Shown here: positions 5,518-11,194 of the stretch, piece by piece | How the letters are laid out: every line of letters begins with the position of its first letter | Numbering within the stretch: position 1 is the first letter of the stretch | Assembly (NCBI RefSeq): GCF_009659535.1 | Contig: NZ_VJZZ01000010.1 | Location: forward strand, 62,001 to 126,000 | DNA from: Aggregicoccus sp. 17bor-14 | GTDB lineage: Bacteria; Myxococcota; Myxococcia; Myxococcales; Myxococcaceae | Length of the DNA stretch: 64,000 nt | Reading direction: 5' to 3' | Notes under the pieces: generated by a model | The model's input: the letters and a program-made list of their open reading frames with translations, nothing else | Databases searched by the model: none | Told to the model about the DNA's origin: nothing | Translations under genes and position numbers: made by a program

Positions 5518-6330
5518 CTAGCGCTGGCCGGCGGGAGCCGGGGTGGCCGAGCCGCTGCCGCCGCTGCCCGCGCCGCCGGTGAGGCTCTCGCCGCTGCCGC
5601 GCGCGAGCCGCGCCTTCATCTTCTTGATGAGCCCGTCCACGCCGTCCTTGCGGATGATGCGGTTGAACTGGCTGCGGTAGTTCTCGAGGATGCTCACGCC
5701 GTCCGTGACCACGTCGTAGGCGCGGAAGCCCTGGCCCTGCGGGTGCAGCAGGTAGTCGATGCGCACCTCGAAGGGGCGGCCGCGGCGCTGCGCGAGGATG
5801 CGCGTGTGCACGAGCTGGTCGGCGCCGCGCGCCTCCTCACCCTCGTACTTGATCTCGTAGTTGAGGTTGCTGCGCAGCTGGGAGAGGTAGTTCTGCTCCA
5901 CCACGTCGCGCAGCGTCTCGGTGAGCGTCTTGCGCTGCGCCGGGGTCATGGTGCCCCAGTGCGAGGCGAGCGCCCGCTTCGCCAGGTCCTCGATGTCGAA
6001 GAGCGAGCGCAGCTCCTCGGTGATGGCGCGCGAGGTCTTCGCGTCCGGCGCCTGGCCGGCGGGCACCGCCTGCAGCAGCTTGCGCAGCCGCACGTTCGCA
6101 TCGCGCAGGGCGCGCGTGGCGCCGGTCTCGGGGCCCGGGGCGCTGGGGGCCGCGGCCGCCGCAGGGGCGCTCGGCGCGGGGGCGGCCGCGGGAGCCGGCG
6201 TCTGGGCGGCTGCCGAGCGGCCGAGCAGCATCAGGCCGAGTGCGAGCAGGCTGGCGCGCAGGACGCGGGGCCGGGCGGCAGAGGGAGTGCGGCGGGTGGC
6301 AGAGAGAGAGGGGGAGTGGCTCATGGTCAT
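5518..6330 (-). CDS. MlaC/HpnM-family periplasmic lipid-carrier protein
   Basis: A protein of about 270 residues with a Sec signal (hydrophobic LRASLLALGLMLLG, cleavage near AAAQ) and a long Ala/Pro linker. A toluene-tolerance/MlaC domain follows, seen in RSLFDIEDLAKRALASHWG, LRDVVEQNYLSQL, VDYLLHPQG-like strands and AYDVVTDGVSILENYRSQF. Family members are soluble periplasmic proteins that ferry phospholipids or hopanoid-type lipids between membranes; HpnM of hopanoid loci belongs here. It is the last gene of the minus-strand operon with TolC, RND and PAP2 proteins, starting about 22 bp after the PAP2 stop. ATGs at 6330 and 6324 are equally plausible, and neither has a strong ribosome site. 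No MlaABDEF partners are nearby, so it probably serves the RND pump. Confidence 0.85.
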   Translation of the reverse strand: MTMSHSPSLSATRRTPSAARPRVLRASLLALGLMLLGRSAAAQTPAPAAAPAPSAPAAAAAPSAPGPETGATRALRDANVRLRKLLQAVPAGQAPDAKTSRAITEELRSLFDIEDLAKRALASHWGTMTPAQRKTLTETLRDVVEQNYLSQLRSNLNYEIKYEGEEARGADQLVHTRILAQRRGRPFEVRIDYLLHPQGQGFRAYDVVTDGVSILENYRSQFNRIIRKDGVDGLIKKMKARLARGSGESLTGGAGSGGSGSATPAPAGQR

Positions 6331-6352
6331 CTGTACCGATGGAGGCGGCGGT

Positions 6353-7168
6353 CTATTCAACCGACTGGGCCGAGGCGGAGTCGGCTGCGAGCGGGCGCAG
6401 CCGCGCGAGCGCGGGGTTCTGCAGGCGCTGGTACTGCCACAGCAGGACGAAGGCGAGCGCCATCACCAGGCCGCCCGCGGCCGCGTCCAGGACGAAGTGG
6501 TTCCCGGTCACCACGATGACCAGGAGGATGAGCGGGGCGTACAGCGCGCTCACCGCCTTCACCCACAGCGGGCGCGCCCAGCGCACGATGCCGGTGCTCA
6601 CCAGCAGCGAGTAGCCGAAGTGCATGGAGGGCACGGCTGCGTACTGGTTGAAGAAGTGGCGCCGCCAGCCGCGGTACAGGTCCACGCCGCTCGAGTGGCG
6701 CAGCGTGTCCACGATCCCCAGCGCCTCCATGAGCCGCGGCGGGGCCACCGGGTACACCACGTAGATGATGACCGCGATGGCATTGGCCACGAAGAAGCCG
6801 TTGCGCACCCAGGCGTAGTCGCTGCGGTGGTAGCGGTACAGCCACATGAAGAAGAGGATCGTCACCGGCAGGTGCGCGCGCATGTACACCGCGTTGAGCA
6901 CCTGCTTGAGCGCCTCGTGCGGCAGGAACAGCGCCTGCATCCCGGGCTCCACGTACAGCCCCAGGGCGCGCTCGAAGCGGACGATGTCCATCGCGTGGCC
7001 CATCGCCACCTCCTCCCCCCCGATCGCGATGGCCCGGCTCAGCTGGTACACGCCCAGCGCGAGGAGGAAGTACAGCCACTCCATCGCCCACGGGCGGCGC
7101 TGGGCGAGCCGCGCGAGCGCCGAGGTGGGCGGCTGCGCAGGGACGGAGGGGAGGCTGGTGGGGCTCAT
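6353..7168 (-). CDS. PAP2_3-family phosphatase/phosphotransferase, inositol-phosphoceramide-synthase-like
   Basis: A 271-residue polytopic membrane protein with about six helices. The catalytic signatures are VPSMHFGYSLL and GNHFVLDAAAGG, matching the PS(L/M)HxG and HHYxxDxxxG pattern of fungal AUR1 and related PAP2_3 enzymes rather than the KxxxxxxRP/PSGH/SRxxxxxHxxxD set of ordinary PAP2 phosphatases. The first His would act as base and the second His as phospho-nucleophile. YPVAPPRLM before the first motif is also typical of the subgroup. Known relatives dephosphorylate lipid phosphates or transfer phosphoinositol to ceramide. Its ATG overlaps the RND stop as ATGA, so it is coupled to the exporter. 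A role in making or trimming the exported lipid is inferred. Confidence 0.82.
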   Translation of the reverse strand: MSPTSLPSVPAQPPTSALARLAQRRPWAMEWLYFLLALGVYQLSRAIAIGGEEVAMGHAMDIVRFERALGLYVEPGMQALFLPHEALKQVLNAVYMRAHLPVTILFFMWLYRYHRSDYAWVRNGFFVANAIAVIIYVVYPVAPPRLMEALGIVDTLRHSSGVDLYRGWRRHFFNQYAAVPSMHFGYSLLVSTGIVRWARPLWVKAVSALYAPLILLVIVVTGNHFVLDAAAGGLVMALAFVLLWQYQRLQNPALARLRPLAADSASAQSVE

Positions 7169-9747
7169 CGCCGGCTCGCAGTCAGTCGCGTCAGGAGGGC
7201 AGGCACGGCACCGAGCGCCGCGGCAAGGCAGGTGAACTCCCCGAGGATCGCGGCGCCGCCGAACGAGCGCAGCCCCTGGTTCTCGGAGATGAGCAGCGAA
7301 CCGTAGCCGACGATGGTGGTGTAGGAGCAAAGGAACACAGCGCCGCCCACTGTAGACAAAAGCTGGCGCGGGCTCTCGCCCGTCTGCTGGTGGCGCGCGG
7401 CGAGGTTCGCCGCGTAGTCGATGCCGATGCCGATGGTGATGGGCAGGGCCACGAAGTCCAGGAAGTTGACCTTGATCCCCATCACCGCGCACAGCCACAG
7501 CATCATCGTGGTGCCCAGCAGGCTCGCCAGCAGCGTGATGGTGGCGTGGCGCGAGAAGCCCAGCATCAGCAGCACCACCAGCGTGGCGCCCACCATCGAG
7601 GCCACCGTGGCGCGCGGGCCGTCCGTGTTCATGGAGTCCAGCAGGTCCGCGAACACGAAGGTGCTGCCGCCCACCTGGGCGCCCTGCACGTCGATCTTGC
7701 GGAAGTCGTTCACGAAGGAGCGCAGGTCCTCGGCGAGCCAGGTGTTGTAGTGCAGCCCCACGCCCGCGAGCACGATGCGCCCGCGCGTGCCGTCGCGCTC
7801 CGTGTAGGGCCAGGCCAGCTCCACCGGCACGTCCTGGGTGGTGAGCGCGCGCAGGCCCTCGGGGGGCAGCAGCAGGCGGCGGTCCTCGTCCGAGAGCTCG
7901 GAGGCGGCCGCGCCCTGCAGCATCTGGCTGCGGATGTCCTGGAGCAGCGCGAGCTTCTGCGGCTGGTCCGTGGGCAGCTGGTCCTCCAGCGTGGAGATGC
8001 GGCTGAAGAGCTTCTCCTGGTCCTGCTTGCCCGCGTCGTGCGCGCGCAGCCGCGCCGCCACCTGGGTGGCCGCCTCCTGCGTGGGCAGCGCGATCACCAT
8101 GCCGCCCGAGATGCCGCGGCCGAAGCCCCGGTCCACCTTGTCCAGCCAGTCGCGGATGGCCAGGATCTCCGCGCTCGAGGAGCGCACGTTGCGGAAGTCG
8201 CGCTCGAGCGGGTCGTGCGCGAGGTAGAGCACCGCGCCCAGCACGCTCACCAGCAGCAGCGCGAGGCTCACCAGCGCCACGGGCGCCGTGCGGCTCGGGT
8301 AGAGCTTCGCCAGCGCCTGGCCGCTCTTCGGCTCGCCGCGCGGGTGCATCCCGCGCCGCCGCGCCACCGCCAGCAGCGCGGGCAGCACCGTGTAGGTGGC
8401 CACCCAGCACGCCACCATGCCCATGCCGCCGATGATCCCGAAGTGCCGGAAGCCGCGGAACTGGGTCACGATGAGCGAGCCGTAGGCCACCGCCGCCGTG
8501 AGCCCCGCGGTCGCCGTGCCCTTGAGCGTGCCGCCCAGCGCGTGGGCGAGCGCGTCCAGGTCCGGGCGCCCCGCGCGCAGCTCCTCGAAGTAGCGCGCGA
8601 GCAGCACGATCCCGAAGTTGATGCCGTTGCCCACCACGATGGCCGAGAGGAAGGCCGTGGCCAGGTTCAGGTGGCCGATGGTCAGCTTGGTCAGCGCGAA
8701 GGTGAGCAGCGTGCCCACCGTCAGCGTCCACAGCAGCGCCCCCACCCCGCGCACCGAGCGGTAGTAGGCGAACAGCCCCAGCCCCACCAGCACGATGGTG
8801 AGCACCGTGGCCAGCAGCATGCCGCTGAGGATGGACTTCTGCTCCGCCTGGCCGTTGGCCACGTCTCCGGCAAGCCCCACCGTCACCGTGGGGCCTGCGG
8901 CCGCCTTCGCCACCGGCCCGTCCTGCACCTGCGGGGCGCTGCAGCCCGGCCCCACCTCGGCGCAGGCCTCCTGCACCGCCTTGCGCACCGCGCTCATCAG
9001 CTCGCGCGACAGCCGCACCTCGCTCGAGGCGAAGGGCGTGCGCACGATGAGCAGCTGCATCTTGCCGTCCTTGGACACCAGCCCCGCGGACTCGTGCGCC
9101 TTCTTCTCGGCGTCACGCATGCGCGTGCGCAGCTCCTCGATGCGCGTGTCCGGCGCGTCTCCAGAGGCCTTGTCGTCAGAGCCCTTGTCGTCAGAGCCCT
9201 TGTCCGCGCCCTGCTTCTTCGCGTCCTTCTTGGGAGCCGGCGCCTCGTCCTCGTCCTCGAAGGAAACGTAGAGCGGGTTGCTCTTGAGCTTCGCCTCGGT
9301 GATGCGCGAGCTGAGCGCGTCGTGCGCGGACTGCAGGTCCGCGAGCGGGGCGAAGAGGAAGCGGTTCTGCCAGCGGAACTCGCGCGCCTTCGCGTCGTCC
9401 GCGGCCACGCTCGCCACCAGCTTCGGATCGATGGTGCGCAGCCGCCGTGCCACCTGCTCGGCGGTGCGCGTGCGCAGGGCCGCGTCGTCGCTCTCCACCG
9501 CGATGAGCAGGGTGCCCAGCGAGCTCACCCGCTGCTGCAGCGCGCGCAGGTCGCGCACCGACTTCGCGTCCGGCGGCAGCAGCCAGGAGAAGTCGCCGTA
9601 CACCGGCAGGCGCGAGGAGAGCCAGCCGCACAGCAGCACCAGCACCACGGACACCGCGAGCACCCGCACGCGGTTCGTGTCCAGCCAGGTCGCCCAGCGG
9701 AGGCTGCGCTCGGAGGGGGCGGAGCCCGGTTCACTTGGGGAGTGCAT
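7165..9747 (-). CDS. RND/MMPL-family lipid exporter, HpnN-like
   Basis: An 860-residue inner membrane protein with the twofold MMPL layout. Helix 1 (about residues 28-47) precedes a large periplasmic loop with a charged low-complexity insert (KGSDDKGSDDKASGD, encoded by a 15-bp tandem repeat). A five-helix bundle follows, with FLSAIVVGNGINFGIVLLAR. After a second helix-plus-loop comes a second bundle with DFVALPITIGIGIDYAANLA. The GN(G)INFGI and GIGIDYA segments hold the acidic and polar residues of the proton relay, though the first half has Asn where Asp is common. Size and two-loop structure match HpnN-type hopanoid exporters and MmpL proteins. It overlaps the tolC gene by 17 bp and the PAP2 gene by 4 bp. 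No periplasmic adaptor gene is present. Confidence 0.88.
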   Translation of the reverse strand: MHSPSEPGSAPSERSLRWATWLDTNRVRVLAVSVVLVLLCGWLSSRLPVYGDFSWLLPPDAKSVRDLRALQQRVSSLGTLLIAVESDDAALRTRTAEQVARRLRTIDPKLVASVAADDAKAREFRWQNRFLFAPLADLQSAHDALSSRITEAKLKSNPLYVSFEDEDEAPAPKKDAKKQGADKGSDDKGSDDKASGDAPDTRIEELRTRMRDAEKKAHESAGLVSKDGKMQLLIVRTPFASSEVRLSRELMSAVRKAVQEACAEVGPGCSAPQVQDGPVAKAAAGPTVTVGLAGDVANGQAEQKSILSGMLLATVLTIVLVGLGLFAYYRSVRGVGALLWTLTVGTLLTFALTKLTIGHLNLATAFLSAIVVGNGINFGIVLLARYFEELRAGRPDLDALAHALGGTLKGTATAGLTAAVAYGSLIVTQFRGFRHFGIIGGMGMVACWVATYTVLPALLAVARRRGMHPRGEPKSGQALAKLYPSRTAPVALVSLALLLVSVLGAVLYLAHDPLERDFRNVRSSSAEILAIRDWLDKVDRGFGRGISGGMVIALPTQEAATQVAARLRAHDAGKQDQEKLFSRISTLEDQLPTDQPQKLALLQDIRSQMLQGAAASELSDEDRRLLLPPEGLRALTTQDVPVELAWPYTERDGTRGRIVLAGVGLHYNTWLAEDLRSFVNDFRKIDVQGAQVGGSTFVFADLLDSMNTDGPRATVASMVGATLVVLLMLGFSRHATITLLASLLGTTMMLWLCAVMGIKVNFLDFVALPITIGIGIDYAANLAARHQQTGESPRQLLSTVGGAVFLCSYTTIVGYGSLLISENQGLRSFGGAAILGEFTCLAAALGAVPALLTRLTASRR

Positions 9748-11194
9748 AGGCCTCGGTATAGGGGGCGCCCATGGCGCGCATCAGGGTGAAGACGGCGATG
9801 TCCCAGTCGAACGTCGCCTGGGCGAGCCGCGCGCGCTGGCCGAACCAGGCCGTGAGCGAGTCGCCGATGTCCTTGGTGTCCACGAGGCCCGCGGCCTCCG
9901 CCTGCAGGCTGGAGACGAGCCAGGCGCGCGCCTCGGCCTCGCCGGCGATCGCCGCCTCGCGGCGCCCCAGCGCATCCTGCGCGTCCGCCCAGGCCGCGCG
10001 CGCGGCGAGCTGCGCGGCGGAGGCGGCGAGCCCCGCGCCGGTGCGCGCGCGCGCGGCGTCCGCCTCGGCGCCCCGCAGCCGCGCGAGCCGCGTGGCCGGG
10101 TCAATGGTCCAGCGCAGCGCGAGCCCCGCGCCCACGCTCGTGGTGTTGAAGGGGTCGGCGAAGTAGGCGTTGTGCGGGTTCTCGGCGCCGGCGGCGCGCG
10201 CGAAGGCGCCCTGCGCCACCACCGCCAGGTCTGGCAAGAGGCGCGCGCGCTCCACGTCCGAGAGCCCCTCGGCCGCCTTGGCCGCGTACTGCGCGGCGCG
10301 CACGTCCGGCCGCCCCGAGCTCTCGCTCTCCGCGTGCGCGAGCTGCGGCAGCCGCCCGGGCAGCGCCTCCAGCGGCTTCTCGTCCACGTCCACCTTGTCG
10401 TCGCCCGCGAGGAAGCGCACGCCCGCGAGCGCCACCGCCTCCAGCTTGCGCGCCTCGGCGAGCCGCCCGGCGGCCTCCGTCTGCAGCACGCGCAGGCGGC
10501 GGCGGTCGCCCTCGCCCAGCTCGGTGTCCGGCTGCGCGAGCTCCTCCTCGGTGCGCTTCACCGCCTGGCGCAGGATGTCCTGGCCCTCCTCGAGCATGGA
10601 CACCAGCTCGCGCCCCAGCTTCACGCCGTAGTAGGCGCGCGCCGCGTCCACCGAGGCGTCTGCCGTGCCCGCCTCCACCAGCGCCTGCGTCGCCGCCACG
10701 CCGGCCTTCGCCGCGCGCAGGCCGCCCTCGCGCTTGCCGAAGGTGTAGATGGGCCAGACGGCGCGCAGGTCGATGCGCACCAGGGCGCCCTGGAAGTGCA
10801 CGCCCGGCTCGCGCGGGTCGGTGGTGATGCAGTCGTCCACGGACGGGATGCAGTTGATGCGCGGGCTGGGCGCCCCCAGCACCGTGAGCTCGCCCTGGGG
10901 CAGGGTCACGCGCGCGACCTCGTCCTGCTTCGCCTGCATCGACTGCACCTGCGAGCGCACCATCTCCACGCGGGCGCCGCGCTGGGCGCGCTCGATCAGC
11001 GCGGGCAGGTCCAGCGCCTGCGCCGGGCGCGCGTGCGCCGCGGTGGGCGGGGCGGGGGCCGCCGGAGCCGCGGCGGCAGGCGCCGGTGTGGGAGCCGGTG
11101 CGGAGGTGGGCGCGGACGCCGCGGGGGGAGCCGGGGCCTGGGCCAGCACGGGCCCCGCTACCCACAAGCTCAGAATCGTGAAGCACGCGCGCAT
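9731..11194 (-). CDS. TolC-family outer membrane efflux protein
   Basis: A 487-residue outer membrane channel subunit. The start at 11194 gives a signal peptide ([20 protein letters not shown]) and an Ala/Pro-rich linker to about residue 60. After this come long amphipathic alpha-helical segments with coiled-coil character ([58 protein letters not shown]) typical of the periplasmic barrel of TolC. The frame is open 27 codons upstream but lacks a signal there. It is the first gene of the operon with the RND exporter, the PAP2 enzyme and the MlaC-like carrier, so it probably forms the outer membrane exit for that system. A perfect 9-bp inverted repeat lies 58-102 bp upstream of the start. Confidence 0.87.

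What the first reader, a model, noticed from the sequence alone, without database searches (positions are those of the whole stretch)
6353..7168. AUR1/IPC-synthase-like PAP2_3 enzyme inside an exporter operon
PSMHFGY and GNHFVLDAAAG fit the PS(L/M)HxG plus HHYxxDxxxG signature of inositol-phosphoceramide synthases rather than classical PAP2. In Bacteroides such an enzyme makes inositol sphingolipids (established). Finding one coupled to an RND exporter suggests phosphoinositol-type lipid synthesis linked to export in myxobacteria (inference).
Basis: partly seen in the sequence, partly recalled or inferred. Interest (0 to 1): 0.6.

Follow-up and report, generated by a model that had tools for sequence, protein, structure and literature searches.

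The report
AUR1-fold lipid enzyme in lipid-export operon
A myxobacterium carries a membrane enzyme with the same fold as the fungal inositol-sphingolipid synthase AUR1, but from a different branch of that family, inside an operon that looks like a machine for moving lipids to the outer membrane.

Summary
The gene is real: a 271-aa PAP2_3 protein (P0002) at 7168..6353 on the MINUS strand, in a tight operon OEP/TolC-like - MMPL/RND (HpnN-like) - PAP2_3 - MlaC. Fold and family are right: its AlphaFold2 model matches AUR1 best (Z 18). The specific claim is wrong: P0002 is outside the AUR1/BT_1522 clade (AU p 0.0175), has N where those have the first H of HHY, and R where they have W in APPWY. The genome has a better phosphoinositol-ceramide synthase candidate in a MIPS-PAP2_3-PIP synthase operon. 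P0002's nearest relatives are in Flavobacteriales and Thermoleophilia MAGs; 3 of the best 4 sit beside myo-inositol-phosphate synthase. RNDs of the window's type lie within 16 kb of MIPS or PIP-synthase genes in 26 of 84 cases (about 1 expected), in some genomes inside whole inositol-sphingolipid clusters. Three PAP2_3 subfamilies occupy the slot just downstream of an HpnN-like RND in this phylum. New variant of a known kind; moderately interesting because bacterial sphingolipid transport to the outer membrane is an open question.

The parts
6353..7168 (-). CDS of P0002, PAP2_3 membrane enzyme, 271 aa, ATG start overlapping the RND stop (ATGA)
6611..6631 (-). motif PSMHFGY, residues 180-186; P180, S181, H183 invariant in 50 of 50 aligned subfamily rows
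6485..6508 (-). motif TGNHFVLD, residues 221-228; T221, N223, H224, D228 invariant in 50 of 50 aligned subfamily rows; N223 replaces the first H of the AUR1/BT_1522 HHY motif
6734..6745 (-). motif APPR, residues 142-145; R145 invariant in the P0002 subfamily, W in 17 of the 22 rows of A1
7165..9747 (-). MMPL/RND transporter, 860 aa, HpnN-like (TIGR03480 241 bits, below its cut-off of 752)
9731..11194 (-). outer-membrane efflux protein (OEP/TolC-like), 487 aa from the chosen ATG; the open frame runs to 11275
5518..6360 (-). MlaC-family periplasmic lipid carrier (HpnM/MlaC); the open frame starts with TTG at 6360, an ATG about 30 bases further in is a likelier start (inference)

Best explanation
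P0002 is a PAP2_3 membrane enzyme with the AUR1 fold and a presumed active site of H183, H224 and D228, from a branch separate from AUR1/BT_1522. It probably works at the periplasmic face of the inner membrane on the phosphorylated head group of an inositol (phospho- or sphingo-) lipid, most likely as a head-group phosphotransferase that makes the export-ready lipid. The HpnN-like RND of the same operon extracts this lipid, and MlaC and the TolC-like OEP take it to the outer membrane. Shown: gene, family, predicted fold, operon layout, clade, and the genomic linkage of relatives to inositol-lipid genes. Inferred: substrate, direction, topology, and transferase rather than phosphatase. The operon may replace the exporter that other Myxococcaceae keep beside serine palmitoyltransferase, which is missing from that locus here.
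For: Fold: model pLDDT 89.8, pTM 0.83; best VIA-align matches AUR1 Z 18.1 over 215 residues, ahead of LpxE 14.6 and PgpB-type 8.9-12.3. No Arg at the C3 position in 50 of 50 subfamily rows (motif definition recalled). Relatives: 3 of the best 4 P0002 homologues lie beside MIPS (L089, L090, L092) and 9 others beside PIPS/Ino1, 12 of 84 loci in all. RND: 26 of 84 window-type RND hits (24 of the 55 genomes with a hit, 189 searched) lie within 16 kb of MIPS or PIPS, about 1.1 expected. L071, L178 and L180 show clusters of PIPS, GtrA, MlaC, RND and PAP2_3, with OEP in L071 and L180, and with SPT and GNAT/CerS in L071 and L178. RND directly followed by PAP2_3 on the same strand in 9 of 40 genomes including the own one (read by eye). 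Own genome: the SPT/CerS locus L077 lacks RND, OEP and MlaC, while RND and MlaC are present in 8 of 8 and OEP in 7 of 8 comparison loci; no close orthologue of that RND in the genome, best 33%.
Against: No inositol or sphingolipid gene was identified beside the window operon. 72 of 84 P0002-type loci have no inositol gene found in the stored flanks. The two Thermoleophilia relatives' genomes have no SPT-family match (0 of 2), so ceramide is not the general acceptor. The genome already has a BT_1522-like PAP2_3 and an SPT-linked PAP2_3, so the function may be redundant or different. The window RND is a long single branch whose sister is unresolved.
Confidence: 0.4

Rival explanations
1. P0002 is a phosphatidylinositol-phosphate phosphatase: it removes the phosphate from the product of PIP synthase to give phosphatidylinositol.
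For: In Solirubrobacterales the P0002-type gene stands directly before PIPS and Ino1 (for example L113, L120, L096, L099, L100, L116, L119). The authors of PMC9246714 (passages) write that the bacterial PI pathway had lacked a PIP phosphatase until BT_1525. A MIPS-linked relative (L092) occurs in a genome without an SPT match.
Against: The own genome has a DSP-type phosphatase in its MIPS operon (L059), a likelier PIP phosphatase. The C3 Arg of PAP2 phosphatases is absent. PAP2 active sites usually face the periplasm while PIP is made inside (established knowledge, not tested).
Confidence: 0.2
2. P0002 is a lipid-phosphate enzyme unrelated to inositol (polyprenyl or phosphatidate phosphatase, or a transferase of another head group) that is co-expressed with a lipid exporter of the hopanoid/sterol type.
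For: RND and MlaC match HpnN, BstA and HpnM best by name, although below the cut-offs. Most P0002-type genes (72 of 84 loci) have no inositol neighbour found. No inositol gene identified next to the window operon.
Against: Recurrent inositol linkage of both P0002's nearest relatives and the window-type RND. No classical phosphatase C3 Arg.
Confidence: 0.3
3. P0002 is a true phosphoinositol-ceramide synthase of the AUR1/BT_1522 family.
For: AUR1-like fold; PSxH and HxxxD motifs; weak match to NF052609 (33.7 bits).
Against: Outside the AUR1/type II/III clade (AU p 0.0175); N for H and R for W at clade-specific sites; a profile of the P0002 subfamily does not find AUR1 at E 10 while the mostly type II/III profile finds it at 1.8e-35; a better candidate exists in the genome (L059, 151.5 bits, MIPS operon).
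Confidence: 0.08

Closest known systems
AUR1 / BT_1522 phosphoinositol-ceramide synthases
   Same: PAP2_3 family, same fold (Z 18 to AUR1), PSxH and HxxxD catalytic pattern
   Different: separate clade; TxNH not HHY; APPR not APPWY; no MIPS/PIPS identified in the operon
Actinobacterial / Chloroflexi-type PAP2_3 (Solirubrobacterales PAP2_3-PIPS-Ino1 operon)
   Same: same clade, same invariant residues
   Different: those lie in PI-synthesis operons or elsewhere; P0002 lies in an RND-MlaC-OEP operon
HpnN-HpnM hopanoid transporter and BstA sterol transporter
   Same: MMPL/RND and, for HpnM, a MlaC-family carrier
   Different: scores far below the equivalog cut-offs; PAP2_3 and OEP included; substrate probably not hopanoid (inference)
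Caulobacter sphingolipid locus with second LptC/F/G copies (PMC11324152, passages)
   Same: proposed dedicated sphingolipid transport encoded beside synthesis genes
   Different: Lpt-type there, RND-MlaC-OEP-type in the myxobacteria examined

Membership tests
PAP2_3 (PF14378) | score over Pfam cut-off 27 bits | tested here: met
   138.2 bits
AUR1/BT_1522 IPC synthase | same fold | tested here: met
   Z 18.1 and 18.0 to AUR1; a shared fold shows no function
AUR1/BT_1522 IPC synthase | within the clade of AUR1 and BT_1522-like proteins | tested here: not met
   trees; AU p 0.0175; AUR1 is a long branch, and no Bacteroides BT_1522 sequence was in the tree
AUR1/BT_1522 IPC synthase | HHYxxD and APPWY signatures | tested here: not met
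   TGNHFVLD and APPR; N223 and R145 in 50 of 50 rows of A3, H and W in 17 of 22 rows of A1
AUR1/BT_1522 IPC synthase | NF052609 PhinosDhcerSyn cut-off 480 bits | tested here: not met
   33.7 bits; the myxobacterial type II/III proteins tested also fail (121.7 to 213.3 bits), so this cut-off alone is not decisive
AUR1/BT_1522 IPC synthase | makes ceramide-phosphoinositol | not testable with these tools
   needs lipidomics
classical PAP2 phosphatase | motif C3 SRxxxxxHxxxD (recalled) | tested here: not met
   the Arg position (218, six before H224) is I, V or T in 50 of 50 rows of A3
HpnN hopanoid RND | TIGR03480 cut-off 751.85 bits | tested here: not met
   241.2 bits
HpnM | TIGR03481 cut-off 160.1 bits | tested here: not met
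   72.3 bits
MlaC (PF05494) | score over Pfam cut-off 26 bits | tested here: met
   121.1 bits
undecaprenyl-diphosphatase-like PAP2 | placement with UppP-type PAP2 proteins | not tested
   no UppP-type reference in the trees; NCBIfam gave no such match for P0002 at E 0.01

The most novel reading that the evidence does not exclude
In Myxococcota, HpnN-like RND - MlaC - OEP operons are the missing route that carries inositol sphingolipids and other inositol lipids from the inner to the outer membrane, and a PAP2_3 head-group enzyme sits beside the RND as a coupled 'finish and load' step. At least three non-orthologous PAP2_3 subfamilies have filled this slot, P0002 being one acquired from outside the phylum. 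The P0002 subfamily itself would be a new kind of inositol-phospholipid enzyme.
Probability: 0.3. Interest if true: 0.75.

Novelty: new variant of a known kind. Interest (0 to 1): 0.52.

Why it matters
How bacterial sphingolipids reach the outer membrane is stated to be unknown in two 2024 papers (PMC11087976: no flippases or lipid transporters identified yet; PMC11324152: 'Presently it is not known'; passages). The myxobacterial clusters found here name a concrete candidate set (RND, MlaC, OEP, PAP2_3) that can be deleted one gene at a time. The P0002 subfamily is also a testable candidate for an unassigned step of bacterial phosphatidylinositol metabolism.

Tried and rejected
Rejected: (1) 'AUR1 family member', by tree, motifs and profile. 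(2) 'Ordinary PAP2 phosphatase', weakened by the missing C3 Arg and the AUR1-like fold. (3) 'P0002 is the genome's IPC synthase', because the MIPS/PIPS operon PAP2_3 (L059) is the better candidate. (4) Recent foreign DNA: GC 0.701 and GC3 0.978 are within the window's norm (0.724 +/- 0.031; 0.969 +/- 0.021), so acquisition, if any, is old.

Led nowhere: the first genome-contig scan with P0002 alone (0 relatives); P0002 in 195 genomes of the phylum gave, apart from itself, only two partial matches at E 1e-8 or better (35%, best E 7.6e-9), so no orthologue was found there; literature searches for an RND/MlaC sphingolipid transporter (0 papers with all five terms) and for a PAP2-family enzyme in bacterial PI metabolism (none of the 10 listed answers it, by titles and abstract starts).

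Limits: the gene caller is a home-made codon-usage script with start sites unsure, and noisy. In the PAP2_3 trees 29 and 19 of the 84 P0002-type rows were used, and 17 long or crowding rows were left out. The clade tested by AU was chosen after the first tree was seen. The match list was truncated, so 26 of 84 is a lower bound; the chance figure assumes random placement and a 5.5 Mb genome. Type I and III loci were mostly fetched because RND and PAP2_3 were adjacent; the less biased figure is the 9 of 40 genomes. The nine PIPS/Ino1-linked loci are largely one group (Solirubrobacterales and allies), so they count as about one event; L089/L090 and L092 as about two.

Full report
1. Observation. 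The reported interval holds a real gene, on the minus strand: 271 aa, ATG at 7168, stop ending at 6353. Pfam gives PAP2_3 at 3.7e-40. The quoted motifs are present. Neighbouring frames on the same strand are OEP/TolC-like (to 9731), MMPL/RND (9747..7165), PAP2_3 (7168..6353) and MlaC (from 6360 or a little inside), touching or overlapping by a few bases. The RND is nearest in name to HpnN and BstA, the MlaC to HpnM, all below curated cut-offs. The window lies in a 6.9 Mb, nearly complete genome.

2. Three kinds of myxobacterial PAP2_3. I read the neighbourhoods of 35 PAP2_3 loci. Type II is MIPS - PAP2_3 - CDP-alcohol phosphatidyltransferase/GtrA (NCBIfam PIPSynBT1523 1e-34) - unknown 332 aa - DSP phosphatase. 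This matches the Bacteroides BT_1522-1526 inositol-lipid cluster in content (PMC9246714 and PMC8791184, passages), and the own genome has it on contig C6 (L059). Type I is RND followed by PAP2_3, beside a serine palmitoyltransferase (SerpalmtaseCFB 3.3e-155, below its cut-off) and a GNAT protein taken as ceramide synthase (identification recalled), with OEP and MlaC. Type III is an AUR1-like PAP2_3, in L045, L046 and L070 directly behind a window-type RND and near a PIPS/GtrA protein. M. xanthus is reported to make ceramide phosphoinositol (cited in PMC9246714, passage).

3. P0002 belongs to none of these. In the tree it falls in that clade with 100/100 support, while AUR1 groups with types II and III at 92/86; holding P0002 with AUR1, II and III is rejected, p 0.0175. 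N223, T221 and R145 are invariant in 50 of 50 subfamily rows, against H, L and W in 17 or 18 of the 22 rows of A1. A profile of the subfamily does not find AUR1 at E 10; one dominated by types II/III finds it at 1.8e-35. Yet the predicted structure (pLDDT 89.8) is most like AUR1 (Z 18.1, 3.8 A over 215 residues), so 'works on the AUR1 plan' stands while 'is an AUR1' does not.

4. Links of P0002 relatives to inositol lipids. L089 and L090 read PAP2_3 - about 178 aa - 288 aa (GDPD in L089) - MIPS; L092 has MIPS about 1 kb before PAP2_3. Nine further loci, mostly Solirubrobacterales, have PIPS and/or Ino1 beside it. In total 12 of 84 loci, perhaps three independent arrangements. The two Thermoleophilia genomes have no SPT-family match, which argues against ceramide as the general acceptor and leaves a PIP phosphatase or another inositol-lipid transferase open.

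5. Links of the exporter. The window-type RND was found 84 times in 55 of 189 phylum genomes; 26 hits in 24 genomes lie within 16 kb of MIPS or PIPS, about 1.1 expected. L071, L178 and L180 are large clusters: PAP2_3, HAD hydrolase, GtrA, PIPS, MlaC, an aminotransferase, an oxidoreductase and RND, with OEP in L071 and L180, the 332-aa family in L071 and L178, SPT, GNAT and epimerase in L071 and L178, and MIPS in L180. L062 shows MIPS - PIPS - glycosyltransferase - two proteins that look like acyltransferases (by eye) - phosphoesterase - RND. In the RND tree the window protein is a long branch inside this clade with unresolved sister.

6. A replacement? The own SPT/CerS/PAP2_3-I locus (L077) lacks RND, OEP and MlaC, although RND and MlaC occur in 8 of 8 and OEP in 7 of 8 comparison loci. 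The genome has only distant homologues of the type I RND (best 33%) and two MlaC genes, one of them the window's. The window operon thus carries the parts that the sphingolipid locus lacks; that it serves the same lipids is inference.

7. Conclusion. Mechanism offered: a periplasm-facing H183/H224/D228 enzyme finishing an inositol lipid that RND, MlaC and OEP then move outward (confidence 0.4). The wider pattern, three different PAP2_3 subfamilies directly behind HpnN-like RNDs, is the most interesting part.

Noticed in passing
L059 (G000:C6, about 106.7-113 kb): The own genome carries a Bacteroides-like inositol-lipid operon: MIPS, PAP2_3 (NF052609 151.5 bits), PIPS/GtrA, unknown 348 aa, DSP phosphatase. 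It is the likely ceramide-phosphoinositol pathway of Myxococcaceae, with a DSP phosphatase where Bacteroides has a PgpA-type one.
   Followed up: partly
L071, L178, L180, L064, L072: Combined clusters of PIPS, MlaC, RND and often OEP, SPT, GNAT, epimerase, with a class III aminotransferase and an oxidoreductase of unknown role.
   Followed up: partly
L062 (G045): MIPS - PIPS - glycosyltransferase - two acyltransferase-like genes - metallophosphoesterase - RND: looks like a PI-mannoside-like glycolipid cluster in an Anaeromyxobacter-like genome.
   Followed up: no
L113, L120, L138 and others: Solirubrobacterales PI operon: PAP2_3 - PIPS - Ino1 - PHP/glycosyltransferase fusion; candidate location of an unassigned PIP phosphatase.
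   Followed up: partly
L049:5933-6931 and homologues: A 332-aa protein without any Pfam match, conserved between PIPS and the phosphatase in type II operons and found near the RND in other clusters.
   Followed up: no
L089:6254-7120 and L090:3057-3923: A glycerophosphodiester phosphodiesterase-like protein (GDPD, tested in L089) encoded between PAP2_3 and MIPS in Flavobacteriales MAGs.
   Followed up: no
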